Below, piece after piece: positions 24,039 through 37,746 of a stretch of DNA of 40,036 nt. The notes under the pieces are model-generated. The model was given only the letters and a program-made list of their open reading frames with translations. It did no database searches and was not told where the DNA came from. A program made the translations under genes and the position numbers. How positions within the stretch are numbered: position 1 is the first letter of the stretch; every line of letters starts with the position of its first letter. Source of the stretch: an uncultured Rhodospirillales bacterium (GTDB lineage Bacteria > Pseudomonadota > Alphaproteobacteria > RF32 > CAG-239); contig CACWLK010000015.1 in assembly GCA_902761715.1 (NCBI GenBank), positions 1 to 40,036 of the forward strand, written 5' to 3'.

Positions 24039-24040
24039 AT

Positions 24041-24070: not shown

Positions 24071-24095
24071 ATTGGATTAGATGGCGGATTTGAAG

Positions 24096-25949
24096 CTACG
24101 AGAAAGTAGGTTCGACTACAAGCAAACTATTTTTCCATATGTTTATTTGATTCTCTATATAGGAGTGCCATAAGGAAGAATCATCTATTTCTGTTATATT
24201 AATACATTTATCATATAAATCTTTCATTTGCATATGTGAAACATTAATTCCTGATTGCTTTTTAATCTTTATGATATTTAGAATTTCAGCCAATTGTTTG
24301 ATTGTCATCGGAATAATCTTTTGAAGGGCTCCTTTATAACCGTGTTTAACAGATATCCAATATGTTTCTAATGTGTCTTCATGCAAACTAGGTGCTATAA
24401 AAAGACAATAGCATGAATGTGTTGTATTTCTATTTTCAAATTCTCTTAAATGCCGCATAACAGGCTGACCCTCACTATACCACTGATTTCTCCCCTTAAG
24501 AGTTGTTACTTCACAAATCATACCAAAATTTTCATAATTACATTCAATATCAGGAACTCCTGCCGGAGCTGTAAAAGTCGGCTCATTATCATCTCCAACA
24601 GGAGAGTTCGGCTTTATGCTTATGGCATCATTTATTATATTCAGTGCAATATTTGCCCATTTTTCTAATTCTACAGAGGGTTTATTAATTAATTTATCCG
24701 TTTTATTTGATGCTATATCTGACAGTATTTCTATAGCTGTATCTATTTTTGATATATCTTGGTTATAATCAAATTTTAATTCTTTGTTTTGTAATAATGT
24801 GCGGTATTCTCTAGCTTTGCTGATAGCTTCTTTTAATGTATTTTTTTGCTCTGAAGCCACAAATTCCTTGTGTTGTAACGAAAGTTTATCCTCTAATCTG
24901 TGATTTTCAGAGTTAATTTTATTCAAAATTTCTATTAATTTACTAATCGTCTCAAACGGAAGTTCGTATGCTCCTTGAGTTCCGATATAATTTAACCATT
25001 CTTGTTTGGTAAAATTTCTACTTGCCCCCGTATCATTCTCTAATATGGAATTAATTTCTAACATACGCCTAGGCTCTAAATCTATATACTGATTACCATA
25101 TGCCCCTAAAAATCTTATATATTTTGTTTGTCTCAAGTATCTTTTCATACTATCGCCATATTCTTTTGCATTTTTCACTGGGTTATTAAAGTCAGCAAGA
25201 TAGGTTTGAATATAATTATTTTTATACATATCTCTTGCTGCTTTATACTCTCTGTAATTTGCAAAATTTTGTTGTTTTATGCTTTCGTAATCTGCACGAA
25301 ACTCTAAAATTCTTTCTGCAGTTTCATCAATTTGGTCATAATCCGTCATAGATAGAACAAAAATACCAAATTCATCAGAAGACACTCCTTTAGCCTTTAA
25401 TTCTCTCTCATCACATAATTCATTCACTTTTTTTATCAGTTTTAATGTTGATATAAAAGGTTTAGAATTCCAATCTTTACAACCTTCTGTGATTTCATTA
25501 GGTAGTTGATATTTTAACAAACTTTCTAATAGAGCCTCATCAAATTGAATTTCGCCATCCAACAATTTTCTTCCTATATCCGTTACTCGTATTGCTTCAT
25601 TTTTCTCTGCAACTATATACCCTAGTTTTTTAAGCGGATTCATTGATTGTCTTCCTCGCATAGCTCCGCCACCAACATATTGTTTAGCCTCGTATATGCT
25701 TTGTGCTTCTTCAAACGTCATTTCGTGCATTTTGTCAGTCAACCAAGATTTTTGCTCTTCAGATAGCTTATTGAGAGACTGTGTATTATCAGAATCTAAA
25801 TACAAACGATTTTGGATTAACAATATTTGAAACTTTTCCTGTGATTCATCATTCCAAATTTCTCCTTCTAACCTAGCTGCAACTTTAAGAAAATCTGGCA
25901 ATCTTTCTGGATTACGAACAGATGTTGAAAAATTCCAAAAATCAAACAT
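24096..25949 (-). CDS. Type IIS restriction endonuclease, AlwI/BstNBI-like
   Basis: 617 residues. The start MFDFWNFSTSVRNPERLPDF matches the characteristic opening of AlwI-family type IIS enzymes (W-N-F-S-T-x-x-R-N-P-E-R). The N-terminal half would be the DNA recognition part with winged-helix-like segments. The C-terminal half holds a PD-(D/E)xK-type site: GVPDIECNYENFGMICEVTTLKG (about residues 483-505), where the usual lysine is replaced by Thr (E-V-T), as in the BstNBI nicking family. Relatives recognise asymmetric 5-bp sites such as GGATC or GAGTC and cut a few bases away, and some are strand-specific nickases. The actual site here is unknown. AGGAGT precedes the ATG. It lies 10 bp after its methyltransferase gene, so the two form one operon. 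Confidence 0.82.
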   Translation of the reverse strand: MFDFWNFSTSVRNPERLPDFLKVAARLEGEIWNDESQEKFQILLIQNRLYLDSDNTQSLNKLSEEQKSWLTDKMHEMTFEEAQSIYEAKQYVGGGAMRGRQSMNPLKKLGYIVAEKNEAIRVTDIGRKLLDGEIQFDEALLESLLKYQLPNEITEGCKDWNSKPFISTLKLIKKVNELCDERELKAKGVSSDEFGIFVLSMTDYDQIDETAERILEFRADYESIKQQNFANYREYKAARDMYKNNYIQTYLADFNNPVKNAKEYGDSMKRYLRQTKYIRFLGAYGNQYIDLEPRRMLEINSILENDTGASRNFTKQEWLNYIGTQGAYELPFETISKLIEILNKINSENHRLEDKLSLQHKEFVASEQKNTLKEAISKAREYRTLLQNKELKFDYNQDISKIDTAIEILSDIASNKTDKLINKPSVELEKWANIALNIINDAISIKPNSPVGDDNEPTFTAPAGVPDIECNYENFGMICEVTTLKGRNQWYSEGQPVMRHLREFENRNTTHSCYCLFIAPSLHEDTLETYWISVKHGYKGALQKIIPMTIKQLAEILNIIKIKKQSGINVSHMQMKDLYDKCINITEIDDSSLWHSYIENQINIWKNSLLVVEPTFS

Positions 25950-25959
25950 TTTCTTACTC

Positions 25960-27972
25960 CTAGTAATTTACGATTAGAACTTCTTGTGGTTTGCTCTTTT
26001 TATCTTTGGTCTGATAGTTAGAATTTCCATAAGAATAGTCTAGGTTTATTACCTTATAATTGTTTTCTTTTATCCACGTTTGTAACAATTTGTTTTCTTT
26101 TCCTTTACTATATAGAACATTAGAGAGTGCGAATTTGATACCTTTTGCATCAAGATTACTTAAATATTTTAATAAATCTTTCTCATCCTGTTCTGTCCAT
26201 CCATTCTTTTCATTATATGTTGCACATGTGATAAGATATGGTGGGTCAACATACACAAAGGTATCCTTGTTAATATTTTCCAAAGGATAGTCCCTAAAAT
26301 CATAGTTTGATAGCATGATTTTCTCTGATTTAATTCTATCAAGGAATAGTGAAAGTTTCATCTTCATTTTAGAATTAAAGTCTCTTTTTCCAACGGGCAA
26401 GTTAAATTTTCCCTGATTATTAAATCGCAACTGATTGTTGAAAGAATATATAATAAGTACATACAATAGGAGATAGTATTCGTCATCCTTTATCTTTTTG
26501 GAATTAAAATATTCTCTTAATTTTGTATAGCCAACTTTATTATATTCTTGTAATCCCGTGTCACTTTGGCATGAATAATAATCATATCCATACTTGCTAC
26601 TTTCGGATAAAGAGAACTTTGTAATAATATCTTGTATTGAATCTAAAATTTCTTTTTTATCCTTCTTTTTAAACAGGCTATATATACCATAAAGGCTCTG
26701 ATTATTATCATTTAGCGTTATTTTATTAGCAGAAATATTGATACCAACATTTCCTCCTCCTGCAAACAAATCCAAAAAATTATGTATCCCTTGAGGAAAT
26801 TCTGGCAAAATTTGTTTTAATAATTTGAATTTACCACCAAGATAATTCATTGGCGACTGAATCAACAATTGTTTCTCTTCTTTTTTACATTTACACAAAA
26901 ACAATCTTTCTTCGTTGTCTTGAATATTAGATTTTCCTGTTGTAAAAGACTTATACTTCTTTGAAAAGACCTTAACTTCTCCTTTTTCTTGCAATATTTC
27001 CATTATATCCACATCTGATATTTTCGCATTGGAACGGTTATTTCCCTTTGTTTCCATATTGTTATATGAAAGTAGAATATATTTCGCTTTTATATCCTTT
27101 ATCAGGCTTCTGAATGCTTGCGTTGCCTTGGTTGTGCAATAATCGCTTTTTAGATTATCTCTGTTCATTTTTTTTGCCACACCAGAAACTGCAGGTTTTT
27201 TCCAAGAAGCTACATTTTCTAATAAATGATAGGCATCACAGTACTGGCGTGAATTGTATGGAGGGTCAATATAGACTAAATCTGCTTCAATATTTTTGAC
27301 TAATTCATTTGCGTTCTCATTGTATATTTGATTATTTTTTAATCCAGAATCGGGAATAGGAAGTAACAATTCAAGCTTTTTGCTTAAATCACCATTTCTT
27401 CTGTATGCGTCATAATGTCCACATGTATTAGCAATTTTATCCATAGAATACAGTAGTGATGTGATTAATATAGCTCTTTCTCTTTCATTTATATTATGAG
27501 AATTAAATTGTTTTTCTATATCTTCTCTTATGAATCCAATTTTTCTACAATTTGTTTTGCTAAAAAAAGTATCTGCGAAATTATCGCTCATGTAATTATC
27601 TTTTGATACTGATATACTATTATAGTATTGGATTAAATCCTTTATTTTAAGCAATGAATACTTTTGTTTACCAAACCACGCTAAATGACATATATAGTTA
27701 CTATACAAGATATCGTTTGTTATTAATATTTTATCTTCAAAAGCGGAAGCTACTGCACCAGTACCTGCAAATATATCTGCAACTACTTCAACATCCGAAC
27801 ATTCTTTATCTACAACATTTCGTATAAAATCTAGCAATTTATACTTGTTTCCTAAATATCTTTTATTGTTAATTTTACATGTTTTTAATTTATTACTTGT
27901 TGGAAACTGTATAATATCACATTTATTGTTATGTTGAGATGTATTCTCTTTAATTTGCAGAGCTAACTCCAT
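25960..27972 (-). CDS. Two-domain adenine-specific DNA methyltransferase (D12 class fusion)
   Basis: 670 residues from ATG 27972 (MELALQIKENT), which has AAGGGG nine bases upstream; a TTG 24 bp further up is less likely. Domain 1 (about 25-360) has motif I VVADIFAGTGAVASAF and motif IV VYIDPPYNSRQY. Domain 2 (about 375-670) starts PMNYLGGKFKLLKQIL, with motif I FLDLFAGGGNVGIN and motif IV VYVDPPYLITCATY. Both are Dam/D12-like N6-adenine methyltransferases. Such fusions (M.FokI is the known example) methylate the two strands of an asymmetric site, which fits the type IIS partner downstream. The protein would protect the host from the endonuclease. The order, methyltransferase first, favours safe establishment. 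Confidence 0.88.
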   Translation of the reverse strand: MELALQIKENTSQHNNKCDIIQFPTSNKLKTCKINNKRYLGNKYKLLDFIRNVVDKECSDVEVVADIFAGTGAVASAFEDKILITNDILYSNYICHLAWFGKQKYSLLKIKDLIQYYNSISVSKDNYMSDNFADTFFSKTNCRKIGFIREDIEKQFNSHNINERERAILITSLLYSMDKIANTCGHYDAYRRNGDLSKKLELLLPIPDSGLKNNQIYNENANELVKNIEADLVYIDPPYNSRQYCDAYHLLENVASWKKPAVSGVAKKMNRDNLKSDYCTTKATQAFRSLIKDIKAKYILLSYNNMETKGNNRSNAKISDVDIMEILQEKGEVKVFSKKYKSFTTGKSNIQDNEERLFLCKCKKEEKQLLIQSPMNYLGGKFKLLKQILPEFPQGIHNFLDLFAGGGNVGINISANKITLNDNNQSLYGIYSLFKKKDKKEILDSIQDIITKFSLSESSKYGYDYYSCQSDTGLQEYNKVGYTKLREYFNSKKIKDDEYYLLLYVLIIYSFNNQLRFNNQGKFNLPVGKRDFNSKMKMKLSLFLDRIKSEKIMLSNYDFRDYPLENINKDTFVYVDPPYLITCATYNEKNGWTEQDEKDLLKYLSNLDAKGIKFALSNVLYSKGKENKLLQTWIKENNYKVINLDYSYGNSNYQTKDKKSKPQEVLIVNY

Positions 27973-28040
27973 AAACCATATCCCCTTTGCATGCAACTTA
28001 TTTTTTATCTAACATATTGAAAAACAGTAAAATTTATTTT

Positions 28041-28099
28041 ATTATATTCAAATGGATGCAAAAAGCATCCTGTTTGATAAGTTTTTGCACAAAAAACTT
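28041..28099 (-). promoter_or_regulatory. Putative promoter with two hairpins upstream of the methyltransferase gene
   Basis: Reading the minus strand, a TATAAT box (28041-28046) sits about 70 bases before the methyltransferase ATG, without a clear -35 box. Immediately upstream are two hairpins: GGATGC-AAAAA-GCATCC (28054-28070) and AAGTTTTT-GCAC-AAAAAACTT (about 28079-28099). They would overlap the -35 region and could be binding sites or regulatory structures. The remaining sequence of the gene-free stretch 27973-28510 holds the tRNA-end repeat, a terminator, an inverted repeat and the epimerase promoter described separately; I see no gene in it. Confidence 0.35.
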
Positions 28100-28230
28100 A
28101 AATTTTTGCTAACACTCTTAATTTTAGGGTTTTTACCTCTAATTCAATTAACCTTAAATTTTTTAAAGTGCTTTATTGCAGAATTCATCGCCTCCGCCTC
28201 TTAACACCCATAAGTTAAAAAATCCAATAT

Positions 28231-28255
28231 TTCATCTCGAAAACTGCAAGCTCAC
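28231..28255 (+). repeat. Degenerate 25-bp repeat, left copy
   Basis: This stretch (centred on ATCTCGAAA..TGCAAG) matches 29481-29505 at 20 of 25 positions. Each copy is followed within about 50 bases by a hairpin terminator. The pair brackets the epimerase gene and its promoter. Confidence 0.4.
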
Positions 28256-28263
28256 TCCAGCCA
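28253..28263 (+). repeat. Right copy of 11-bp tRNA-end direct repeat (attachment-site-like)
   Basis: CACTCCAGCCA again, followed at once by a hairpin terminator, just as the tRNA-Gln copy is. The upstream bases (CTGCAAGCT) keep only slight resemblance to the tRNA T arm, so only the last 11 bases are duplicated. Confidence 0.5.
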
Positions 28264-28271
28264 CAGATTAC

Positions 28272-28296
28272 AAAGGACGAGAAATCGTCCTTTTTT
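28272..28296 (+). terminator. Rho-independent terminator
   Basis: 9-bp stem AAAGGACGA/TCGTCCTTT with a GAAA tetraloop and a T-run. On this strand it follows the duplicated tRNA-end sequence and no gene, so it may be the original terminator of tRNA-Gln, displaced 4.2 kb by the insertion. Confidence 0.8.
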
Positions 28297-28320
28297 CTTT
28301 TGTTTCCAAGGCTTTCGGCG

Positions 28321-28371
28321 AGTTCGAAGATTAGCCACCAAATATGCCCTACCCTAGACAATCTTCGAACT
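28321..28371. repeat. Perfect 12-bp inverted repeat with 27-bp spacer
   Basis: AGTTCGAAGATT (28321-28332) and AATCTTCGAACT (28360-28371) are exact reverse complements. No T-run follows, so it is not a standard terminator. It lies about 65 bp upstream of the epimerase promoter and could be a regulator site, a recombination site or a structured RNA element. Confidence 0.6.
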
Positions 28372-28434
28372 AATTTTATCAAGAATCTAACACAATCAAA
28401 AGTTAAGCGGTTTTACATAAACAAGAATCATATA

Positions 28435-28463
28435 TTGACATATATTTTTGTATCAAATAAAAT
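28435..28463 (+). promoter_or_regulatory. Strong sigma-70-type promoter of the epimerase gene
   Basis: TTGACA (28435-28440), a 17-base spacer and TAAAAT (28458-28463). The expected transcript start near 28470 excludes the upstream in-frame ATG at 28448 and supports translation from 28511. Confidence 0.8.
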
Positions 28464-28510
28464 TTGTTCGCTCTATGCATGAGGCTAATTTTCTATCAAT
28501 AAAGGGAAAT

Positions 28511-29467
28511 ATGTCAGAAACATCAACTATTCTAATCACGGGTGGGGCCGGATTTATTGGCTCATCTTTGGCTGATAAATTGTTAACTCTAGATTATCGG
28601 GTTATTGCACTTGATAATTTTAATAATTATTACAATCCGGCAATAAAACACAAAAACGTAGAACAAGCTTTACAAAACAAAAATTACAAGCTTTATGAGG
28701 GTGATATTGAAAACATTGATGATTTGGAGGAAGTGTTTTCAAAAAATAAAATAAATGCAATTATTCACTTGGCTGCACGTGCCGGGGTTCGCCCTTCCAT
28801 AGAAGCCCCGTTAGCCTATGCGATGACAAATATCATCGGAACAATAAATGTTTTGGAAATGATGAAAAAATATGGCATTAAGCGGATGAGTATGGCATCA
28901 TCTTCATCTGTTTACGGAAATTGCAAAGCAAATAAATTTTCAGAAAATTTAAATATTCGGGAACCGATTTCTCCGTACGCTGCTACAAAATCTGCAGATG
29001 AACAAATTTGTTATACTTATCATCATTTGTATGATTTAGATATTTATATGTTAAGGTTTTTCACCGTTTACGGCCCAAGACAACGTCCGGATTTGGCCAT
29101 TAATAAATTCACAAATCTGATAATGTCGGATAAACCGATAGATATGTATGGTGACGGATCCTCAATGCGTGATTATACCTATATTGATGATATTGTGACG
29201 GGAATTATTGCTTCTTTAAATTATCATCAAACGGGATATGAAATTTTTAATCTAGGCGGCGGAAGTCCTGTTACATTAAAAGAAATGATCTCTACTATTG
29301 AAGAAGTTTTAGGAAAAAAAGCTAAAATCAATCAGCTGCCTATGCAACCTGGAGATGTCGATAAAACAGTTTCGGACATATCTAAAGCACAAAGTCTATT
29401 AGGATACCATCCGAACACTTCTTTTAAGGACGGTATTCGTAAATTTATTGCGTGGAAAAACAAATAA
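28511..29467 (+). CDS. NAD-dependent sugar-nucleotide epimerase, UDP-glucuronate 4-epimerase-like
   Basis: 318 residues. It is an extended short-chain dehydrogenase/reductase fold: GGAGFIG dinucleotide loop at residues 11-17, then LDNFNNYYNPAIKHKNVEQ, a pattern typical of UDP-glucuronate/UDP-N-acetylglucosamine 4-epimerases (DN-x-N-x-YY-x-P-x-x-K). HLAARAGVRPSIE follows, then the catalytic ASSSSVYG and PYAATK (Tyr-x-x-x-Lys), and the sugar-binding FFTVYGPRQRPD. It probably makes UDP-galacturonate or a related sugar for surface polysaccharide. AAAGGGA five bases before the ATG and the promoter at 28435 decide the start. It stands alone, with its own promoter and terminator, beside the restriction-modification island. 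Confidence 0.85.
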   Translation: MSETSTILITGGAGFIGSSLADKLLTLDYRVIALDNFNNYYNPAIKHKNVEQALQNKNYKLYEGDIENIDDLEEVFSKNKINAIIHLAARAGVRPSIEAPLAYAMTNIIGTINVLEMMKKYGIKRMSMASSSSVYGNCKANKFSENLNIREPISPYAATKSADEQICYTYHHLYDLDIYMLRFFTVYGPRQRPDLAINKFTNLIMSDKPIDMYGDGSSMRDYTYIDDIVTGIIASLNYHQTGYEIFNLGGGSPVTLKEMISTIEEVLGKKAKINQLPMQPGDVDKTVSDISKAQSLLGYHPNTSFKDGIRKFIAWKNK

Positions 29468-29480
29468 TCTGGGATTATCT

Positions 29481-29505
29481 TTAATCTCGAAACGTGCAAG
29501 TTCAA
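29481..29505 (+). repeat. Degenerate 25-bp repeat, right copy
   Basis: Right partner of 28231-28255, starting 13 bases after the epimerase stop codon. Shared core ATCTCGAAA and TGCAAG. Confidence 0.4.
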
Positions 29506-29538
29506 TCTGACCGATAAAAAACACCTTTTGAGATAGGG

Positions 29539-29563
29539 GGGGCAATCACTTGCCCCGGTTTTT
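29539..29563 (+). terminator. Rho-independent terminator after the epimerase gene
   Basis: 7-bp stem GGGGCAA/TTGCCCC with a TCAC loop, then GGTTTTT. Confidence 0.75.
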
Positions 29564-29651
29564 GAAGATTTTGCTGTTTTTTACTTTTTGTTATCGATTA
29601 TCGTTTATTATGTATGATAGTGAAAACAGTATCAGTGTGGGAGACTATGAT

Positions 29652-29960
29652 ATGAGCAAAGAACTCCGTTTGAAAATCAGAGATCTTAAAAATAAAATAA
29701 CCGGCAAAGATAAGGTTATTGAAGAATATAACAAGGCAACTATGGAAATTGCAACTCTTTCAGACAAAGAAAAAGACCCTGAGGTTAAAAAGCAATTGCG
29801 CGACCTGTACCAGCAGGTTACTGACGAAAAATGGGAAAAAACTGGGAAAAGTTCAATGACTGTTTCGGACTATAACCCCTATAAGGGCAGCAAGAAAAAA
29901 ACACGCCAAAAAATTGAAATGGCTAAAGTAGGGCTGAAGAAAATTAAAGGCGGAAGATAA
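29652..29960 (+). CDS. Small charged helical protein of unknown function
   Basis: 102 residues from the ATG at 29652 (MSKELRLKIRDLKNKI), which has GGGAGA eight bases upstream; earlier in-frame TTG and ATG codons begin in or just after the preceding terminator and lack such a site. Residues 1-60 are Lys/Glu-rich and look like a coiled coil; the tail (YNPYKGSKKKTRQKIEMAKVGLKKIKGGR) is strongly basic and could bind nucleic acid or membrane. No signal peptide. Not recognised. The gene for the cysteine-rich secreted protein follows after 26 bp, so they may share a transcript. Confidence 0.6.
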   Translation: MSKELRLKIRDLKNKITGKDKVIEEYNKATMEIATLSDKEKDPEVKKQLRDLYQQVTDEKWEKTGKSSMTVSDYNPYKGSKKKTRQKIEMAKVGLKKIKGGR

Positions 29961-29986
29961 TTTTATTGCAACATTCGGGGTGGAAG

Positions 29987-30490
29987 ATGAAAAACAGATT
30001 ATGGATATATGTCGCAGCATTTTGTGCAAGTATTTTATCCGCAAATGAGGTTGCGGCATGTATAGGTTCAAACTGCAAACCCTGCCCCACCGGTTATGAT
30101 ATAGTGCAAAAATGTTGTAAAAAAACCGATGCCGAAGATTGTATTTTTCAAGATAATGAAATTGAGGCCTGCGGCGTGGGGCAATGGAGCGAGTATCCTA
30201 ACTCTTTGAATTTTAGAACCAAAGAATGTTGTAAGGATGAAACCGAGAATTTTTGCCGTTTTATTCATTATGAAGAATATTGCGGAAGAGGTGAATTCAA
30301 GGATTTTCCGTATTCTCCAATAAAAATGTGCTGCAAAGATACTGAAGGAAGAGATTGCGTTATTATAAGAGCCAAAAGAAAATGCGGAGAATACCAGCTG
30401 AAAGAATACTCTGTTCGCAAGCCCGATTGCTGCCATTCGTTTTTGCAAAAGTGTACAGGCAAAGTAAATGACTGCCCGAAGTGCCTGTAA
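29987..30490 (+). CDS. Secreted cysteine-rich repeat protein
   Basis: 167 residues from ATG 29987, preceded by GGGGTGGA. A signal peptide covers about 1-24. The end ANEVAAC could be an ordinary cleavage site or a lipobox (VAAC). The mature part has about 20 cysteines in some 143 residues, arranged in about four modules with the pattern C-x(n)-CC-x(5-7)-C, for example ACGVGQWSEYP...ECCKDETENFC and YCGRGEFKDFP...MCCKDTEGRDC. Such modules suggest a disulfide-knotted or metal-binding periplasmic/outer-surface protein. I do not recognise a family. It sits 138 bp upstream of the radical SAM operon, which has a separate putative promoter, so a functional link is only suggested by position. Confidence 0.7.
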   Translation: MKNRLWIYVAAFCASILSANEVAACIGSNCKPCPTGYDIVQKCCKKTDAEDCIFQDNEIEACGVGQWSEYPNSLNFRTKECCKDETENFCRFIHYEEYCGRGEFKDFPYSPIKMCCKDTEGRDCVIIRAKRKCGEYQLKEYSVRKPDCCHSFLQKCTGKVNDCPKCL

Positions 30491-30578
30491 AAAGCTCATA
30501 TTTTCACGAATCGACTAAAAAGCATAGACGAATCGTAAAATTAACTATTTTTTAACTTTTTCATTGATTCTAAAATCT

Positions 30579-30587
30579 TGTTATGAT
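30579..30587 (+). promoter_or_regulatory. Putative extended -10 promoter of the radical SAM operon
   Basis: TGTTATGAT is an extended -10 element (TGn-TATGAT) about 42 bases before the first operon ATG; the -35 region (TTTCAT, 17 bases upstream) is weak. The surrounding 30491-30628 is very AT-rich. Confidence 0.4.
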
Positions 30588-30628
30588 ATAAAAACACATC
30601 CTCTGGTTTTACTTCAAGGATTGTGTAA

Positions 30629-31759
30629 ATGAAAAATTTTAGCAATCACAAGGTATTATCCCAAATATTAACAAACCGAAATATGGAGGGTCCTAATTTC
30701 GGCAGAGGAACAACCGCCTTTGAGCATGACATTGAAAAAATATGGTTAACCGTTAACCGTACATGTAATTTCAGATGCCCGTATTGTTATGCCGAAACCA
30801 CCGATTATAAAAATGAAATGCCCTTAAATATGGCAAAGAAGCTCATTTCTTTTGCTAAAGATATGGGGGCGAAAAGTGTTATTTTAATCGGCGGAGAACC
30901 TCTTTTATATTCTAAACTGGAAGAAACCGTTTCTTATATTGTCAACAACGGAATGAAGGTTGTGGTTGTTACAAACGGTACAGAAATCAGAAAAAAACGA
31001 ATTCAAGATTTAATTGATGATAATAAAATAAATTCCATCGGCTTTTCTTTGAAAGGATGGGATGCTCAGTCGTATCTGGAACAGACAAAAGTAAACTCTT
31101 TTCCGCAGGTTACGGAAGCAATTTCTGTTTTTGCAAAATCTGCTGTCGGAGGAAGCTATTCTTTTGTGATAACAAAACAAACACACGATAAATTACGACA
31201 AGTAGCAGAACTAATCAAACACGATACAAAAAGAAAATTAAAACTAATTTTTTGCAACCCCATTGTTTGGAAAAACGGGATAATCGACGGCAAAGAGATG
31301 TTGCCTGTTGCCGAGTTGGTCGAAAGCGTGATTAAGCAATATGAAGATATAAACAAAATTTTGCAAGGACGTTTGGTATTGCAGCAGTCTTTGCCATCAT
31401 GCGTATGGCCGGCAGATTTTATAGAACATTTAAGAGCATTAAAGCAAATTCAATTTGGATGTAATGTTTGCTCACAAAAAGGTTTAGCCTTTGGAATACA
31501 AGGCGAAGTATTATTATGTAATGCTATAGCAGATTTTCCAATCGCTTATTTTGGAAAAGATTTCACTGATCGACAATCGTTTGTTGCATTTGTTAATGGT
31601 GAAGACAAGAAAGAACTGTTCCACAAGTTTTTCAAATATCCATTTAGACAATGCGGAGATTGCTCAAAAAACGAAGCTTGCCTGGGAGGCTGCCCTCTTA
31701 AGTGGCTGTTTTATTCGGCAAAAGATTGCCGTGATTTGATGCGGACCAAATACGAGTAG
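30629..31759 (+). CDS. Radical SAM/SPASM peptide-modifying enzyme 1
   Basis: 376 residues. The radical SAM cluster motif CNFRCPYC (Cys46, Cys50, Cys53) follows a WLTVNRT strand, and the SAM-contacting GGEPL is at 88-92. The C-terminal third contains a SPASM-like auxiliary-cluster domain: FGCNVCSQKGLAFGIQGEVLLCN, then QCGDCSKNEACLGGCPLKW with Cys342, 345, 351, 355 and a later Cys367. SPASM enzymes typically install thioether, C-C or other crosslinks in ribosomal peptides. No N-terminal PqqD-like recognition domain is seen. AAGGA eight bases before the ATG. The peptide gene begins 24 bp after the stop. First gene of the proposed RiPP operon. Confidence 0.88.
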   Translation: MKNFSNHKVLSQILTNRNMEGPNFGRGTTAFEHDIEKIWLTVNRTCNFRCPYCYAETTDYKNEMPLNMAKKLISFAKDMGAKSVILIGGEPLLYSKLEETVSYIVNNGMKVVVVTNGTEIRKKRIQDLIDDNKINSIGFSLKGWDAQSYLEQTKVNSFPQVTEAISVFAKSAVGGSYSFVITKQTHDKLRQVAELIKHDTKRKLKLIFCNPIVWKNGIIDGKEMLPVAELVESVIKQYEDINKILQGRLVLQQSLPSCVWPADFIEHLRALKQIQFGCNVCSQKGLAFGIQGEVLLCNAIADFPIAYFGKDFTDRQSFVAFVNGEDKKELFHKFFKYPFRQCGDCSKNEACLGGCPLKWLFYSAKDCRDLMRTKYE

Positions 31760-31767
31760 GCAAAATG

Positions 31768-31779
31768 AAAGGAGGTGAT
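31768..31779 (+). promoter_or_regulatory. Near-consensus ribosome binding site of the precursor peptide
   Basis: AAAGGAGGTGAT is an extended match to the anti-Shine-Dalgarno sequence, with AGGAGG eight bases before the ATG at 31784. It is stronger than those of the flanking enzyme genes, as expected for a peptide made in excess over its modifying enzymes. Confidence 0.85.
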
Positions 31780-31783
31780 AGGC

Positions 31784-31843
31784 ATGGAAGAAATGATTTT
31801 GGAAGAAGAAACAACAAGTTGCATGGAATGCTGGTGCGATTAA
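31784..31843 (+). CDS. Candidate RiPP precursor peptide, 19 residues
   Basis: The frame reads MEEMILEEETTSCMECWCD and stops with TAA. A near-consensus Shine-Dalgarno sequence lies eight bases upstream. The first about 11 residues are acidic (five Glu) and could be a leader; the last about 8 hold three cysteines and a tryptophan (SCMECWCD), a dense set of residues that radical SAM maturases commonly modify. It lies between two radical SAM/SPASM genes in the same direction. I infer a precursor of a ribosomally made, post-translationally modified peptide, possibly a crosslinked, metal-binding or cofactor-like product. It does not match a precursor family I can name. An alternative GTG at 31775 would add three residues. 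The coding call rests on the ribosome binding site and context, not on homology. Confidence 0.75.
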   Translation: MEEMILEEETTSCMECWCD

Positions 31844-31939
31844 CCGTAATCGAACAAAAAGTAAAAAAAATAAAATTTTATATTTTTTAGAGTACCTACT
31901 CGTATTTGGATAAAAAAGTCTTTTGGGGAGTTTGTTATT

Positions 31940-32965
31940 GTGAGTGAACAAGTTGATGTGATAAAAAAACCTTTTTATGTGCAATGGCATATTACAAGCC
32001 GTTGCAATTTGCATTGTGAGCATTGTTATCAGCGCAATACCAGTCTGATTTCGGAACTGGACGAAGCAAATTTGCAAAAAATCGCCGACAAACTGGATGA
32101 CATGGCCGCTGCAAACAATTTGAAACTGGCGGTGTCTATTACAGGCGGAGAGCCTTTTTTTAGAAAAGATGTTATTTTTAAGTTGTTGTCTTATTTGCAA
32201 AACAAAGAACATATAGATGCACTGCAAATTTTATCCAACGGGCTTTTGTTGGGTAAAGAAGAAGTAGCAACATTGAAAAAAATAAAAAAACTGAAAGGTC
32301 TGCAAGTATCTTTGGAATCACCTGACAAAGCAATTCATGATCAGATCAGGGGAAAAGGAAATTTTGAAAAGGTAGTTGAAAAAATAGCATTTTTGAAAGA
32401 ACACGGCATAAAAATTTCAGTGATGATGACTATCAGCAAGTTAAATTATAAGCAGATAGCTGAAATGAACGAGCTGTTGAAAAAATTAAAAGTAGATATT
32501 TTTGGTGTTGATCGTTTTATCCCCGAGACCAAAAGTGACTTTGATAAATCTGCCCTGCGCCCTGAAGAGATTAAAGAGGCTTTTCAAACATTGCATGATT
32601 TGTCGCAGACACAACAATCGCCACGAATATCGCTCAATAGACCATTGTATTGTCTGACCGGAGAAAAAGGAACTTGCGGTGCACGTTGTTCGGCTGCGAC
32701 ATCATCGTTTGCAATTTTGCCTGACGGCAGAATGTTGCCTTGCAGAAGATTGCCTATTCCTATAGGCAATGTTTTGAAAGATGATATTGTAAAAATCTGG
32801 AACACAAGTCCTGTTTTGACTGCATTACGCGATGTAAGCAAACTCACCGGCAAATGCCAAAATTGTGAATATGTAAAGCAATGTAAAGGATGCAGAGCTT
32901 CAGCATACGCTGTCTATGGTGATTTTATGAAAGAAGATCCTTTCTGCTGGAAAGAAAACAAATAG
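31940..32965 (+). CDS. Radical SAM/SPASM peptide-modifying enzyme 2
   Basis: 341 residues, starting with GTG (GGGGAG nine bases upstream). The motif CNLHCEHC (Cys22, Cys26, Cys29) follows WHITSR, and ITGGEPFF supplies the SAM-binding GGEP. A full SPASM-type domain fills about residues 230-336: CLTGEKGTCGARC, SFAILPDGRMLPCRRLPIPIGNV, then GKCQNCEYVKQCKGCRASAYAVYGDFMKEDPFCW. The domain layout resembles the PqqE/AnSME/mycofactocin-type maturases. It differs substantially from enzyme 1, so the two likely perform different chemistry on the small peptide encoded 96 bp upstream. The methyltransferase gene follows after 17 bp. Confidence 0.92.
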   Translation: MSEQVDVIKKPFYVQWHITSRCNLHCEHCYQRNTSLISELDEANLQKIADKLDDMAAANNLKLAVSITGGEPFFRKDVIFKLLSYLQNKEHIDALQILSNGLLLGKEEVATLKKIKKLKGLQVSLESPDKAIHDQIRGKGNFEKVVEKIAFLKEHGIKISVMMTISKLNYKQIAEMNELLKKLKVDIFGVDRFIPETKSDFDKSALRPEEIKEAFQTLHDLSQTQQSPRISLNRPLYCLTGEKGTCGARCSAATSSFAILPDGRMLPCRRLPIPIGNVLKDDIVKIWNTSPVLTALRDVSKLTGKCQNCEYVKQCKGCRASAYAVYGDFMKEDPFCWKENK

Positions 32966-32982
32966 CAAAGGAACCGAATCGG

Positions 32983-33759
32983 ATGAAAGCTTTATCAGCA
33001 GATATTTTTTATGATACGTCATACAAAAACAAAACCGACCGTACATTCTACAGCAAATGTATGCAGAGATACCCACATGACGACGTTTTGGAGATTGGCT
33101 CAGGAACAGGAAGAATTTTGTTTGATATAGCTAAGGCAGGCATAAAAATTGACGGTATTGAGCCTAATTATTCAAGGTTTTGCATTGCCAAAGAAAAACT
33201 CGAAAAGAGCCCGGATAATATAAAAAACAATGTTGGTTTATATAATTGTGATTTGGAGCATTTTGAGGCGTTGCACAAATATTCGATGATTATTATGCCG
33301 TTTAGAGTATTGCAAGAGTTTGCCTCAGCAGAAGAACAAGAACAAGCACTAAAAAAACTAAAAACCTTTTTAAAACCGGGCGGACTGCTGATATTTGATG
33401 TAATTAATCCGAATGTTAAAATGCTTTCATTAAAGCCATCTGCTCACAAGATAATGAAAACAAAGCAATACCAAAAAGGCGGAAGAACTTTTGTTAAAGA
33501 AAGCGTGCTTAAAAAAATAGATGTTAAAAATCAAATAATGAGTTGCGAGCAAGTTTATTATTTTACAGAAGGTGCCAGCACAAAAAAATTGTTTAAATAC
33601 AAATATAAAAGTCGATATTTATTTTATGCCGAGTTAGTAAATTTGGTGCGTTTTTTGAACTATCAGATTGTGAATGTGTTTGGTAGTTTTACGTTCAAAG
33701 AATTTGATAAACTCAGTAAACCTAAAAACATTATTATGGTGCTTAAAAATAAGGAGTAG
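32983..33759 (+). CDS. Class I SAM-dependent methyltransferase
   Basis: 258 residues. Motif I is DDVLEIGSGTGRILFDIAKAG, followed by IDGIEPN as the acidic end of strand 2, then CDLEHFEAL and the FLKPGGLLIFDVINPN strand typical of small-molecule or peptide methyltransferases. It does not show DNA- or RNA-methylase motifs. Within the operon its likely role is to methylate the peptide or an intermediate, but the target atom cannot be read. AAAGGA lies ten bases before the ATG. The next gene begins 4 bp after its stop, so they are transcribed and probably translated together. Confidence 0.85.
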   Translation: MKALSADIFYDTSYKNKTDRTFYSKCMQRYPHDDVLEIGSGTGRILFDIAKAGIKIDGIEPNYSRFCIAKEKLEKSPDNIKNNVGLYNCDLEHFEALHKYSMIIMPFRVLQEFASAEEQEQALKKLKTFLKPGGLLIFDVINPNVKMLSLKPSAHKIMKTKQYQKGGRTFVKESVLKKIDVKNQIMSCEQVYYFTEGASTKKLFKYKYKSRYLFYAELVNLVRFLNYQIVNVFGSFTFKEFDKLSKPKNIIMVLKNKE

Positions 33760-33763
33760 TAGC

Positions 33764-34537
33764 ATGGCCTATGCAATAACACAAAATAAATTTGCACCAA
33801 AATGTGCTGAATATAAAAATACCAATACTGAAAACTCACATTCGATTGCTTTTGACAAATGTAATTTTAGGTGTGCATTTTGCGGACTGACCAGAAAACG
33901 GCGTACAAATTTGAAAAATTATTCGGCAGAGGAATTTGAAGAAAAAGTAAAACAACTGATAAAACAAGGACGCAGCTTTAAATTTACCGGCGGAGAACCG
34001 ACATTAAACCCAGATTTGGCGAGAGATTTGAAGATAGCAAAAAAATATGGCGGAAAAATATATTTGGATACAAATGCCTCCAACCCTGAAAAAATAAAGG
34101 CATTGGCAAACGATGGTTTGATTGATGTTATCGGAATTTCGCTGAAGGGGCTGTCTGCCGATGAGGCGGTCAAAACAGCCGGAATTGCAAACAAAAAACT
34201 CTGCTGGGACAATGTTTTTGAAACAATCGATTTTTTAGCTGAACAGCCAAATATTCGCACAATTATAACATATGTTTTGACCAAACCGGAAGAAACAGAG
34301 CAAACGTTGGAGAAATTTGCCGAATTGCTTAAGCCATATCCGCATGTGTATATAAAAATAAATAACCTTTTTCCGAATGACGTGGCAAGTGAAAACGGTT
34401 TGTCCCCTTTGAAAGAAGATTGTTATTTTGCGGAGCTGAAAAAGTTTGTTTCAAGACATGCGGAATACAGAGGGAGAATAATTTTGATTCCGTCAATGGA
34501 TGCCATGACGAATTATTCAGCAATAGAGTTCTATTAA
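33764..34537 (+). CDS. Radical SAM enzyme 3, minimal type without SPASM domain
   Basis: 257 residues from the ATG at 33764, which has AAGGAG seven bases upstream; a longer frame from 33674 would lie inside the methyltransferase gene. The motif CNFRCAFC (Cys33, Cys37, Cys40) is followed by FKFTGGEPTL. There is no cysteine-rich C-terminal domain, so only one iron-sulfur cluster is expected. Size and layout resemble activating-enzyme-like or MoaA-like radical SAM proteins. In this operon it may carry out a third modification, or act on an enzyme or cofactor. Last gene of the proposed RiPP operon; the STAS gene follows after 110 bp. Confidence 0.88.
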   Translation: MAYAITQNKFAPKCAEYKNTNTENSHSIAFDKCNFRCAFCGLTRKRRTNLKNYSAEEFEEKVKQLIKQGRSFKFTGGEPTLNPDLARDLKIAKKYGGKIYLDTNASNPEKIKALANDGLIDVIGISLKGLSADEAVKTAGIANKKLCWDNVFETIDFLAEQPNIRTIITYVLTKPEETEQTLEKFAELLKPYPHVYIKINNLFPNDVASENGLSPLKEDCYFAELKKFVSRHAEYRGRIILIPSMDAMTNYSAIEFY

Positions 34538-34647
34538 AGAATATTTTTTGAGTAATTTAAAAAATTATCAAGATTTTAACGATTGTATTTTATTATCAGG
34601 ATGAATAATGATTTTGCCTGAATTACAAAAAAGCAGAGGAACAAACT

Positions 34648-34965
34648 ATGGCAGAGATGAATAAGCAATTGCGAATCGAACAAAAACGTGAAGGCGACAA
34701 GTTGTCTTGCAAATTGACAGGTTGGATGGACCCTAACACTTCTCCAGATTTGCTCAACAAAATAGATTTGAGTGGCATTAAGTCGTTAGTGCTGGATATG
34801 GGAGGAGTAGAATATGTATTTTCGGCAGGTTTACGATCAATCTTGATGTTGCAAAAATTACTCGAGTTTCAGGGCGGAAGCATTAAGTTAATTAATTTAT
34901 CAGATGATGTTCGCAGTATTTTTGAATGCACAGGATTGGATAGTCTCTTAGAGCCTAAAGCATGA
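34648..34965 (+). CDS. STAS-domain anti-sigma-factor-antagonist-like protein
   Basis: 105 residues, a single STAS domain: KLSCKLTGWMDPNTSPDLLNKI, then LDMGGVEYVFSAGLRSILMLQKLLEFQGG and IKLINLSDDVRSIFECTGLDSLL. The serine in FSAGL corresponds to the residue phosphorylated in SpoIIAA/RsbV proteins, and the otherwise usual D-S-S-G-L is F-S-A-G-L here. It would switch between phosphorylated and free forms and titrate a kinase/anti-sigma partner. AGAGGAAC lies before the ATG. Its stop overlaps the start of the downstream sensor gene (ATGA), a classic coupled pair. Confidence 0.85.
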   Translation: MAEMNKQLRIEQKREGDKLSCKLTGWMDPNTSPDLLNKIDLSGIKSLVLDMGGVEYVFSAGLRSILMLQKLLEFQGGSIKLINLSDDVRSIFECTGLDSLLEPKA

Positions 34966-37313
34966 AAAATTTTGTAAAATCGTGGTTTGGCAAACATTCT
35001 ATAAAATTCAAGTTGAACTTGAGCATTTTAACTTGCGTTTTCTTGTGTTTTTTGGGACTGATGATTATTATTTCAAAAAAATCAGAACCGATTATAAAAG
35101 AACAAATAGATGAAATAGCTCAAAAGTCGGTTGAAATGTATGCCGCAGATTTTGCACATTTGATTACTGATGCCGAGCAAATTATTATAAACACTAAAAA
35201 CGCCTTATCCCAGATATCTAAAGATGACACCAAAACTTTAAATGTAGTTTTGAGTTCGGCAATAAAAACAGTTTATCACTCAGAATTGAGCTTTAGCGGA
35301 GGTTGGGTTTATATTTTCCCGCCGGAGAATGTGTCGCAAGGCAAGCTATATTCAGTAATAGATAATGATGATGGTTTGATCAGTTTCAAGACCGAAAAAA
35401 TTGAAAATTTTTATCACCATTTTCCATGGTTTAAGACTGTTCCTAGAGAAGAAAAAATTTTTTGGTCAGAGCCTTATCGTGATATAGAAACCGGAGAAGT
35501 CGTAGTAACTTGTTTGATGCCATTTAAGTTTTGGGGGCAAAAAGAGTTGAACGGTTTGGTAGCTTTGACGATAGATTTGTCAGAAATGCACCGTAACAGT
35601 TTGAAAGGCTCATCGTTCTACCGCAGCGGAAAGTTGCTTTTGTTGTCAAAGACAGGATTGTATGTAAATCACCCTAACCCCAACGTGGCCTTACGATTAA
35701 CCATTTTCCAGTTATCTCGGATGATGAAACTGCCGCAGTTGGGACTGGTAGGCAAGCATTTGGTAGCAGGAAAATCGGGACAAGCGGAAATTCCATATTC
35801 GTCAGTAGTTGACGGTCCGGCAATTTTCTTTTATGCGCCGATAAAAAACATCGGATGGGGTTTTTGTTTGGTATATGCAAAAGACGAACTCTTAAAACCG
35901 ATCAGACAGTTTAAGTGGATTGTTGGTTTGTCACTTTTGATGTTTGTTGCCTTGATGTTAGTGATAACCGAAAGAATAGGTCACCACTCAGTGGGACAGT
36001 TGATTACGTTGTGTGATGTGGCAGAAAAATATGGTAAAGGCGATTTTTCTGAAAACTTTGATGAAATGCCGACATCATCAGAGATCAACAGATTGGCAAC
36101 CGCAATTGCTGATATGAAATCAGATATTTTGGAGTATGTTAACAAAGAAAAAGAAGGAGCCGCAGAACGACAAAAGAATGAGAGTGAGCTCGAAATTGCC
36201 CGACACATTCAAAAGTCAGCATTGTCAACAAAATATCCGAAAAGCGATGCCTTTGAGATAGCCACAACGATGGTACCGGCCAGACTGGTTGCAGGTGATT
36301 TTTATGACTTTTTCTTTATTGATGACAACAAATTTGCAATTGTGATTGCCGATGTGTCAGGCAAAGGTATTCCGGCATCGTTGTATATGATGAAAGCGAT
36401 AACGTTAATCAAAAATATAAGCCGAAGCAAGATGGGGTTGGACTTTGTGTTTGAGCAAGTAAACCAACAACTGTACGAGGGCAATGATACATGTATGTTT
36501 GTTACGGCTTTTATGGCAGTGGTTGATCTGCTGACCGGCAAAGCAAAATATGTTAATGCCGGACATTTGCCGCCACTGATAAGTAACGAAAATAAAAAGA
36601 AGTTTATAAATGTAAAAACAAATGTGGCATTGGGTGTTTATGAAAACGCAACTTTTGCTGAAGAAGAAATTGATCTTGATCCGGGAGCACATTTGTTGCT
36701 ATACACCGACGGCGTAACAGAGGCCGAAAACAAAGCCAACAAACGCTATGGCAATGAAAGGTTGTTAAAGATATTCAGCAAGGCAAATTCTACACCGGCA
36801 AACAACCTCGATTTGGTTATGAAAGATGTTAAGCGGTTTATAAAAGGCAATCCGCGATCAGACGATATTGCTATGTTGGATTTTGTTTTCCACGGGTATG
36901 AACCGGGAACAATCACCATGCCGGCAAAGTTGGAAAAAGTGCAAGAATTTTTGATGTATTTGCGCGACGATATGATTGAGCACGGGTTGTCTAAAAAAGC
37001 AGTGTTTAATATGGTGATGAGTGCGGAAGAGATATTTGCAAACATTGCACGCTATGCATATGAAAGCAAAGACAATGCCATGGTGACAATAAAAACTCGC
37101 CAAGATGATGAAATGTATTATGTAAAGTTTATTGACCAAGGCAGAAAATATAACCCGCTGAAAAACGAGATGCCGGATTTGACCGTGGACATTAAACAGC
37201 GAAAAATCGGGGGACTGGGAGTGTTGTTGGTGAAAAAGCTGACTGACAGCACAAGCTATAAATGGCAAAACAAACAAAACATCCTCGAGCTCGGCGTGAA
37301 GATGAAGAAGTAA
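34962..37313 (+). CDS. Membrane sensor with PP2C/SpoIIE phosphatase and RsbW-like kinase domains
   Basis: 783 residues. First membrane segment about 17-40, then a large periplasmic Cache-type sensor domain to about 318, with the strand-rich pattern GGWVYIFPPEN...PWFKTVPREEKIFWSEPYRD seen in double-Cache domains. The second membrane segment is about 320-338 and a HAMP linker follows. A SpoIIE phosphatase (about 410-640) keeps the metal acids in GDFYD, ADVSGKG, YTDGVTEAE and SDDIAM. A C-terminal HATPase (about 645-783) has the N box MSAEEIFANIARYAYES, G1 FIDQG and G2 GGLGVLLVKK. It therefore holds both the phosphatase and the kinase for the STAS protein in one chain, controlled by a periplasmic signal. 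Such partner-switching modules regulate sigma factors or enzymes. Confidence 0.88.
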   Translation: MKNFVKSWFGKHSIKFKLNLSILTCVFLCFLGLMIIISKKSEPIIKEQIDEIAQKSVEMYAADFAHLITDAEQIIINTKNALSQISKDDTKTLNVVLSSAIKTVYHSELSFSGGWVYIFPPENVSQGKLYSVIDNDDGLISFKTEKIENFYHHFPWFKTVPREEKIFWSEPYRDIETGEVVVTCLMPFKFWGQKELNGLVALTIDLSEMHRNSLKGSSFYRSGKLLLLSKTGLYVNHPNPNVALRLTIFQLSRMMKLPQLGLVGKHLVAGKSGQAEIPYSSVVDGPAIFFYAPIKNIGWGFCLVYAKDELLKPIRQFKWIVGLSLLMFVALMLVITERIGHHSVGQLITLCDVAEKYGKGDFSENFDEMPTSSEINRLATAIADMKSDILEYVNKEKEGAAERQKNESELEIARHIQKSALSTKYPKSDAFEIATTMVPARLVAGDFYDFFFIDDNKFAIVIADVSGKGIPASLYMMKAITLIKNISRSKMGLDFVFEQVNQQLYEGNDTCMFVTAFMAVVDLLTGKAKYVNAGHLPPLISNENKKKFINVKTNVALGVYENATFAEEEIDLDPGAHLLLYTDGVTEAENKANKRYGNERLLKIFSKANSTPANNLDLVMKDVKRFIKGNPRSDDIAMLDFVFHGYEPGTITMPAKLEKVQEFLMYLRDDMIEHGLSKKAVFNMVMSAEEIFANIARYAYESKDNAMVTIKTRQDDEMYYVKFIDQGRKYNPLKNEMPDLTVDIKQRKIGGLGVLLVKKLTDSTSYKWQNKQNILELGVKMKK

Positions 37314-37373
37314 GAAACTGCTGAAGAAATGCAAAAAAAACGAGGAACGGCGAAAGGAATGGGGATTATACCA

Positions 37374-37712
37374 TTAATCGCAAATTTTAGCTGCAATATT
37401 GAGTTGCAACTTATCTACTACAATACTAATGCAATTAGGGTAAAAGATAAATTTATAAAATTCACAATCCTTAAATCTCATAACAGCTTTTTGCAATAAA
37501 CTATAGTCGCTGATAGCATATTTTTCTTTCAAATTATGTTGTTTCCCGGTTACATTCATTATTTTAACAGGAAGTTCAATATCTCTATAAACTAATAAAA
37601 CACTATCATCATATATTTCAATATAAAGAACAGATTTACGCCCTCGCTGTAAATTTTTCTTTATATGTAACATCTGTTTTCGAATATCATCTCCGCAAAT
37701 ATCTAACTCCAT
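37374..37712 (-). CDS. Hypothetical protein, 112 residues
   Basis: A small soluble protein (MELDICGDDIRKQMLHIKK...) with alternating hydrophobic and charged segments, no signal peptide and no motif I recognise. GGGAG lies about eight bases before the ATG. It is convergent with the sensor gene and 34 bp downstream of the DNA methyltransferase-like gene on the same strand, so it might belong with that system. AT content is high, as in the neighbouring restriction genes. Low information: could be an accessory gene of the restriction system or unrelated. Confidence 0.55.
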   Translation of the reverse strand: MELDICGDDIRKQMLHIKKNLQRGRKSVLYIEIYDDSVLLVYRDIELPVKIMNVTGKQHNLKEKYAISDYSLLQKAVMRFKDCEFYKFIFYPNCISIVVDKLQLNIAAKICD

Positions 37713-37746
37713 TATGCATCTCCCAGATATCAGTTATAAATTACAA

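What the first reader, a model, noticed from the sequence alone, without database searches (positions are those of the whole stretch)
30629..34537. Compact operon with three radical SAM enzymes, a methyltransferase and a 19-residue Cys/Trp peptide: candidate new RiPP pathway
Seen: five same-strand genes with gaps of 4-96 bp encode two radical SAM/SPASM enzymes, a class I methyltransferase, a minimal radical SAM enzyme and a tiny peptide MEEMILEEETTSCMECWCD with an extended Shine-Dalgarno. Known: SPASM enzymes typically modify ribosomal peptides (PQQ, mycofactocin, sactipeptides, ranthipeptides). Inferred: the peptide is matured by up to four enzymes to a small crosslinked or metal-binding product or cofactor. 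No protease or transporter gene is in the operon, suggesting the product may be retained in the cell or use shared export, more cofactor-like than antibiotic-like.
Basis: partly seen in the sequence, partly recalled or inferred. Interest (0 to 1): 0.93.

Follow-up and report, generated by a model that had tools for sequence, protein, structure and literature searches.

The report
Peptide-modifying operon with enzyme-borne leader
A compact bacterial gene cluster encodes three radical SAM enzymes, a methyltransferase and a 19-residue Cys/Trp peptide that these enzymes likely modify; the recognition tag (leader) that related peptides carry is missing from this peptide and possibly sits on one of the enzymes instead, which would be a natural version of a trick known from engineered enzymes.

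Summary
In detail: five same-strand genes (gaps 24, 96, 17, 4 nt) encode rSAM/SPASM enzyme A, a 19-aa peptide with a perfect AAGGAGGTGAT ribosome site, rSAM/SPASM enzyme B, a methyltransferase and a small rSAM enzyme D. The RiPP reading is supported: 23 of 52 loci of A homologues (Patescibacteria, Bacillota, Nanobdellota and others) have a Cys-rich small ORF directly downstream, against 2 of 294 control ORFs, both of them B-type rSAM genes with their own Cys-rich peptide. Judged by equal contig length, A, B and D stay together elsewhere (67-75% identity), and A with B once more (41/51%). That leader-on-enzyme reading rests on moderate statistics, driven mainly by two relatives, and is untested. 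The chemistry is inferred. No Pfam or NCBIfam model seen names A's family. A perfect 15-bp inverted repeat flanks the peptide gene; attenuation is possible. Verdict: real, new variant of a known kind.

The parts
30629..31759 (+). Gene A: radical SAM/SPASM-type peptide maturase, 376 aa, with an N-terminal extension of about 30 aa
30629..30718 (+). N-terminal extension of A (about residues 1-30), shared with P0002-P0006; proposed enzyme-borne leader
   Evidence: Alignment; in 49 of 52 measurable relative loci a start codon lies within 19 residues of the WLTVNR-like motif, exceptions L029 (35), L084 (20) and the truncated L045; clade 98/95; helix 4-15 in the model
30662..30694 (+). Leader-like stretch of the extension (residues 12-22, QILTNRNMEGP)
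   Evidence: Aligned family window ranks first of 833 windows of the A, B and D alignments for resemblance to 38 leaders; family column-permutation p 0.017, window lineage alone p 0.34
31746..31760 (+). Left arm of perfect 15-bp inverted repeat, covers the stop codon of A
   Evidence: expected 0.02 matches
31769..31779 (+). Perfect extended Shine-Dalgarno AAGGAGGTGAT of the peptide gene
31784..31843 (+). 19-aa peptide MEEMILEEETTSCMECWCD, proposed leaderless precursor with core CMECWCD
   Evidence: position and ribosome site as in relatives' precursors; for the leader motif 246 of 251 control N-termini score at least as high, i.e. no leader of that type
31862..31889 (+). AT-rich palindrome between peptide and B
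31895..31909 (+). Right arm of the 15-bp inverted repeat
   Evidence: nothing comparable around 39 relatives' precursors
31940..32965 (+). Gene B: radical SAM/SPASM enzyme of the wider TIGR04053/ACGX-like group, 341 aa
   Evidence: homologues beside Cys-containing or ACGX peptides
32983..33759 (+). Gene C: class I SAM methyltransferase, 258 aa
   Evidence: weak resemblance to CpaM and daptide MTase models, far below cut-off
33764..34537 (+). Gene D: small radical SAM enzyme without auxiliary-cluster cysteines, 257 aa
   Evidence: homologues of A, B and D listed with the same 17,694-nt contig

Best explanation
The five genes form a compact same-strand cluster for a likely RiPP pathway in which the 19-residue peptide is the predicted substrate of rSAM/SPASM enzyme A, which likely crosslinks its CMECWC cysteines, and would then be further modified by B, the methyltransferase C and the small rSAM enzyme D. 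Shown: the genes, their order, the perfect ribosome site, the recurrent Cys-rich small ORF next to homologues of A and of B. Inferred: that homologues listed with equal contig lengths share a contig; that A acts on this peptide; that the bond is a thioether (from the resemblance of A and B to CteB, SkfB and SuiB); what B, C and D add. Inferred with less confidence (about 0.35): relatives' precursors carry an N-terminal leader; here the leader has been lost from the peptide and is retained as the N-terminal extension of A, so that A is permanently switched on for a leaderless core and no leader peptidase is needed.
For: Precursor ORF at the same place: 23 of 52 A loci versus 2 of 294 control ORFs (mechanical ORFs of 150 aa or more), both controls being B-type rSAM genes with their own Cys-rich peptide; looser two-strand count 38 of 54 versus 37 of 197 control placements. 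Four convergent precursors not used for training (L006, L012, L014, L050, related to each other) carry the learned leader motif above all 251 controls; a fifth untrained one, L011, is matched by 18 of 251. B homologues lie beside a Cys-containing small ORF in 8 of 11 loci by eye, one of them a curated ACGX target peptide. Equal contig lengths: A 67%, B 75%, D 75% at 17,694 nt; A 41%, B 51% at 15,748 nt. In 152 genomes of the bacterial family, A-like genes occur in 3, B-like in 2 and D in 1, G000 included, at the thresholds used. Leader capture: one clade, 98/95; P0005 and P0006 extensions matched by 1 and 2 of 251 control N-termini for the leader motif and by 0 of 239 B/D-family N-termini; leaders score above controls for the extension's own profile, 0 of 300 column-permuted profiles as good; the extension's aligned window ranks first of 833 without preset register.
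Against: The peptide itself has no known homologue (DNA of the nearest relatives could not be read) and is half the length of the shortest relative precursor picked. The window's own extension does not reach significance alone: 60 of 251 controls as good, with its best segment in another register; P0002 78, P0003 222, P0004 27 of 251; window lineage p 0.34, all without P0005/P0006 p 0.28. The rank-1 margin is small (0.94 versus 0.85 for a window of D). L029 has an enzyme with an unavoidable stretch of 35 residues before the motif together with an ordinary leader-bearing precursor, and that stretch does not look like a leader (120-166 of 251), so an extension need not be a leader. The precursor before A in L038, a P0010-like locus, does not carry the motif (96 of 251). 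Lack of a leader peptidase is not specific: many Bacillota loci with ordinary precursors lack the HExxH gene too. No C or D match above 50 bits appears in the other loci held; D was not found in 48 A-bearing genomes, a search without a positive control. Three Cys and one Trp codon inside an inverted repeat could be regulatory.
Confidence: 0.72

Rival explanations
1. The peptide is a complete short precursor with its own minimal leader (MEEMILEEETTS) or needs none, and the N-terminal extension of A is an unrelated helix (dimerisation or docking).
For: rSAM RiPP precursors of about 20 residues exist (recalled: PqqA); several rSAM maturases work without a leader according to the review PMC8326336 (passages read); the window's extension is not significant by itself; L029 shows a non-leader-like extension in the family.
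Against: The acidic dozen residues do not match the motif of the relatives' leaders (246 of 251 controls as good); the extension clade's best register agrees with the leader motif in every subset tested.
Confidence: 0.38
2. The short ORF is a regulatory upstream ORF: ribosome stalling at its Cys and Trp codons controls the 15-bp stem and expression of B, C and D according to amino acid supply.
For: Perfect 15-bp inverted repeat encloses the ORF, no other full copy of an arm listed in the genome; three Cys and one Trp codon near the end; no comparable repeat around 39 other precursors.
Against: Position, ribosome site and Cys spacing are those of precursors of the same enzyme family; the terminator scan lists none between peptide and B; the fold of the region is only modestly better than shuffles (z -1.78, 10 of 200 as good).
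Confidence: 0.12
3. A acts on a protein or another peptide elsewhere, and the 19-aa ORF is chance.
For: rSAM/SPASM enzymes also mature sulfatases and cofactors; A's nearest folds include anSME and MoaA.
Against: Only small ORF in the window with such a ribosome site; relatives' precursor association; CMECWC composition.
Confidence: 0.06

Closest known systems
SCIFF/CteB and SkfB thioether (ranthi-/sactipeptide) maturases
   Different: No room for an N-terminal RRE in A (rSAM core begins near residue 36); A is far below the cut-off of each of the 25 NCBIfam models shown; precursor lacks a family-type leader.
ACGX system (TIGR04340 maturase / TIGR04341 target peptide)
   Same: B belongs to the same wider group (176 bits) and three B homologues (L151, L152, L155) lie beside ACGX-like peptides, the one of L152 passing TIGR04341.
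   Different: B scores well below the model's cut-off of 400 bits; the window peptide has no ACG repeat.
Engineered leader-enzyme fusions (LctCE, HalCE2)
   Same: Leader attached to the maturase lets it act on a leaderless core (PMC5141572 and PMC13003496, passages read).
   Different: Those are engineered lanthipeptide synthetases; here it would be natural and in a radical SAM enzyme, and is not tested.
Biarylitides and leaderless lasso precursors
   Same: Very short or leaderless RiPP precursors in nature (PMC13417212 abstract; PMC13003496 passage).
   Different: P450 or lasso enzymes; no leader carried by the enzyme is mentioned in what I saw.

Membership tests
Radical SAM superfamily (A, B, D) | CX3CX2C motif and radical SAM domain | tested here: met
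SPASM-domain peptide maturases (A, B) | C-terminal auxiliary cluster cysteines (GX4C, CX2CX5CX2-3C; pattern recalled) | tested here: met
   Pfam SPASM hits B; A fails the Pfam model but has the pattern, conserved
SPASM-domain peptide maturases (A, B) | Adjacent small precursor gene in the family | tested here: met
Leader-dependent RiPP with RRE | RRE domain or PqqD-like partner in the cluster | tested here: inconclusive
   No such Pfam match in A, B, C, D; divergent RREs can be missed and none was sought by structure
A's own family of precursors | N-terminal leader of about 30 residues with the family motif | tested here: not met
   19 residues, open frame 24 at most, no leader motif
Sactipeptide/ranthipeptide | Thioether crosslinks in the product | not testable with these tools
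   needs mass spectrometry
ACGX system TIGR04340 (B) | Score above curated cut-off 400 | tested here: not met
   176.3 bits
PqqE / mycofactocin maturase | Score above curated cut-off (381 / 265) | tested here: not met
   A 51.7 / 46.7, B 97 / 92.8 bits
Prokaryotic viperin (PADLOC pVip) | Score above the NCBIfam viperin cut-off of 180 | tested here: not met
   A 64.7, B 74.1, D 59.5 bits; PADLOC pVip matches read as generic rSAM matches
Natural leader-maturase fusion | Extension homologous to family leaders | tested here: inconclusive
Natural leader-maturase fusion | Extension needed for, and sufficient to allow, modification of a leaderless core | not testable with these tools
   needs biochemistry

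The most novel reading that the evidence does not exclude
A natural leader-to-enzyme transfer: in this clade of a still unnamed radical SAM maturase family the leader has moved from the precursor to the N-terminus of the enzyme, leaving a leaderless 19-residue core that is matured by three radical SAM enzymes and a methyltransferase without any leader-cleaving protease, so that the mature product is released directly as a short crosslinked Cys/Trp peptide.
Probability: 0.35. Interest if true: 0.88.

Novelty: new variant of a known kind. Interest (0 to 1): 0.72.

Why it matters
If right, evolution has made the leader-enzyme fusion that chemists built to free RiPP maturases from their leaders, which would give ready-made enzymes for crosslinking short synthetic peptides. 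Independently of that, A belongs to an rSAM/SPASM family, unnamed in the libraries searched, with Cys-rich precursors across Patescibacteria, Saccharibacteria, Nanobdellota and Bacillota, often with an HExxH partner that matches no Pfam family above cut-off.

Tried and rejected
Viperin-type antiviral enzymes: PADLOC matches for A, B, D are far under the NCBIfam viperin cut-off. Carriage of A: 119 plasmid records match, the 20 listed at 22-24% identity, and 6 weak phage records. The scan of genome contigs with A alone found nothing; the second, with alignment A1, kept the best 80 of 151 loci, of which I used those with A scoring 95 bits or more, plus L003 and L084: 54 in all. Viral scans gave one full-length A relative (L084), none for B and 13 weak ones for D that I did not pursue. 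D could not be placed in a context: none in 151 other family genomes or in 48 A-bearing genomes (the tool warns that an empty answer without a positive control shows nothing). The inverted repeat is not a family feature: of 39 other precursors only L030 has an 8-base repeat at p 0.05. HExxH protein: no Pfam family above cut-off for the 8 scanned; a confident model (pLDDT 95) but only weak Foldseek matches to zinc metallopeptidases, E 0.2 or worse. One search's loose criterion has a high background (37 of 197), so I lean. Rows dropped: one search left out L028, L038, L045, L047, L048, L049 (split, truncated or partial); one search used 52 of 54 loci (L048 and L049 end at A); could not measure L030 and L035. 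The 39 leaders were picked by eye, not blind; the 21 HExxH ORFs were picked. Literature: ten searches of the open-access library; in the titles and abstract starts listed and the passages read I saw no natural leader-maturase fusion and no paper on this family. Most listed papers were not opened and subscription papers are not held, so this is not proof of absence.
Full report
Observation. A and B are radical SAM enzymes with SPASM-type cysteines, C is a class I methyltransferase, D a small radical SAM enzyme. The peptide MEEMILEEETTSCMECWCD has an uninterrupted AAGGAGGTGAT ribosome site; no other small ORF in the 40-kb window, on either strand, has a match of nine or more bases. Its frame is open for at most 24 residues, so a long leader cannot be hidden upstream.

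Family of A. A finds 39 proteins in the large protein collection. Their alignment (A1, 21 rows) gives 80 loci in public genomes (the best of 151), of which about 50 are near full-length relatives at roughly 23-38% identity, in Patescibacteria, Saccharibacteria, Nanobdellota, Bacillota, Spirochaetota and Verrucomicrobiota. No NCBIfam model seen claims A: its best is MoaA at 84.5 bits against a cut-off of 325 (25 of 77 shown). The same holds for P0004, P0005, P0009 and P0017.

Precursors. Twenty-three of 52 usable A loci have a small ORF starting between -25 and +150 nt of the stop of A with at least three Cys in its last 30 residues and an SD match of six or more; the same test succeeds for 2 of 294 other mechanical ORFs of 150 aa or more in these loci, and those two are longer B-type rSAM genes (435 and 438 aa) followed by CDCYDCDYNCEECDSK-like peptides. 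Others lie upstream (for example L009, L026, L042, L046, L055) or face A from downstream (L006, L012, L014, L050). A looser two-strand count gives 38 of 54 against a background of 37 of 197. Cores mix CxC and CxxC (CKNCICKCQNCKCGHC, CDCTYCPC, CNACSACDCAC), as does CMECWCD in the window.

Family of B. B finds 467 proteins at E 1e-20 or better, 120 listed, and scores 176 bits with the ACGX maturase model, below its cut-off. Among 11 distinct B loci, one in the window's own bacterial family (L150) and ten in 9 of 48 A-bearing genomes, eight lie beside a small ORF with three or more Cys by eye (L150-L153, L155, L158, L159, L161; L159 is the B locus of L012 already met). The peptide of L152 passes the curated ACGX target model (60 bits, cut-off 28). 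So the window peptide sits between two enzymes whose relatives often pair with Cys-containing peptides.

Linkage. P0002 (A 67%), P0041 (B 75%) and P0161 (D 75%) are all listed with a 17,694-nt contig; P0004 (A 41%) and P0045 (B 51%) with a 15,748-nt contig. That equal length means the same contig is an inference. For P0003 (99,696 nt), P0005 and P0006 no such partner is listed. In the window's bacterial family A-like genes occur in 3 of 152 genomes, B-like in 2 and D in 1, always counting G000 itself. GC falls from 39-43% to 29-37% at 24 kb and stays low to the window end, and restriction-modification genes stand on both sides of the cluster: I read this as an acquired island.

Where is the leader? 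Ordinary precursors here have about 30 residues before the first core Cys. A Gibbs search in 39 of them gave an 11-residue motif, roughly [FL][LI]xx[LFH][KRN]x[TS]GI; four related leaders not used for training score above all 251 control N-termini, a fifth (L011) is matched by 18. The window peptide has nothing like it. A of the window and P0002-P0006 begin 34-38 residues before the WLTVNR-like motif. In 49 of 52 measurable relative loci a start codon lies within 19 residues of that motif (which start is used is not shown); the exceptions are L029 (35 residues, unavoidable), L084 (20) and L045 (truncated). P0010 is listed with a long N-terminus too, which I take for a miscalled start (its motif score is matched by 87 of 251). 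A tree made without the extensions groups the six at 98/95.

Tests of the extension. It aligns as QILTNRNMEGP / NIIKKRNVSNI / NLLGKRNLSDI. For the leader motif P0005 and P0006 are matched by 1 and 2 of 251 controls, P0004 by 27, the window by 60 (in another register), P0002 by 78, P0003 by 222; against 239 N-termini of the B and D families the numbers are 0, 0, 17, 25, 33 and 221. As a family in one register the column-permutation p is 0.017; P0004-P0006 alone 0.033; without P0005/P0006 0.28; window lineage alone 0.34, though the same register is chosen in every subset. In reverse, the profile of the extension scores 38 leaders above 251 controls (3.48 versus 0.93; 0 of 300 permuted profiles as good), with the register taken from the first test. 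With no preset register the extension holds ranks 1, 2, 4 and 5 of 833 windows in the A, B and D alignments, the next rival close behind (0.94 versus 0.85). These tests overlap and are not independent. L029 shows that an extension can exist beside an ordinary precursor and not look like a leader. I read the whole as moderate support.

L010, grouped near the clade at 94/93, has a 36-residue ORF (2181-2291, MTQRTKKLLNLIKNTIDTDK...) with no Cys directly before A, and a 25-residue, one-Cys peptide with a perfect ribosome site further up (2016-2093); for the motif they are matched by 20 and 18 of 251 controls. It might be a leader and a core on separate ORFs, but the 25-mer may belong to the rSAM gene before it. 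The precursor before A in L038 does not carry the motif (96 of 251).

Protease. At least 20 of 54 A loci have an HExxH protein of 113-244 aa, mostly just after the precursor. Eight scanned match no Pfam family above cut-off. A confident model (pLDDT 95) resembles zinc metallopeptidases only weakly (E 0.2, among them the lanthipeptide peptidase EryP). It could be the leader peptidase, or a hydroxylase of the kind reported for other HEXXH proteins in RiPP clusters (PMC12636437, passages read). The window cluster lacks it, as do many Bacillota loci with ordinary precursors, so the lack is suggestive only.

Inverted repeat. CCAAATACGAGTAGG at 31746-31760 (including the stop of A) and its perfect complement at 31895-31909 enclose the peptide gene; 0.02 such matches are expected, no other full copy of an arm is listed in the genome, and none of 39 other precursors has a comparable repeat. 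The region folds modestly better than shuffles (z -1.78). A stem around the precursor might adjust its level relative to B-D, or be an attenuator, which is the reason for the regulatory rival.

Verdict. The cluster is very probably a RiPP pathway and the peptide its substrate. A natural enzyme-borne leader is the boldest reading left open, at about 0.35. Bench tests are stated under next steps.

Noticed in passing
window 24000-40036: GC drops from 39-43% to 29-37%; type II restriction-modification genes (24096-27996) and a type IIG-like gene (37747-40020, which lacks the first 165 positions of the profile at the window's edge) flank the cluster: a likely genomic island.
   Followed up: partly
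window 29966-30490: Cys-rich protein of 174 aa with repeated CC pairs and a signal-like N-terminus, upstream of A on the same strand; no Pfam or NCBIfam match at E 1e-3.
   Followed up: no
window 34648-37313: STAS-domain protein and SpoIIE-type phosphatase with Cache and histidine-kinase-like ATPase domains directly downstream of the cluster.
   Followed up: no
window 31746-31909: Perfect 15-bp inverted repeat enclosing the peptide gene, not seen around 39 relatives' precursors.
   Followed up: partly
P0022: 236-aa protein that joins an N-terminal part of A to the rest of D at the shared GGEP stretch: recombination between the two rSAM genes or an assembly chimera.
   Followed up: partly
L010:2016-2291: Short ORFs before A that might be a one-Cys core and a leader on separate ORFs.
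   Followed up: partly
L012:9074-10544, L013:4458-5897, L161:1477-2957: Longer B-type rSAM proteins (435-438 aa, the length of relatives that carry a PqqD domain) followed by Cys-rich peptides; L012 and L013 hold an A-type and a B-type cassette side by side.
   Followed up: partly
L005, L008, L012, L013, L016, L019 and others: HExxH protein family recurrent beside A-type precursors, no Pfam family above cut-off.
   Followed up: partly
L034:7266-7544, L031:8305-8580: Extremely Cys-Asp-rich ORFs with (DC)n-like repeats near A homologues in Bacillota.
   Followed up: no
L029: A homologue with an unavoidable N-terminal stretch of 35 residues that is not leader-like, beside an ordinary precursor.
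   Followed up: partly
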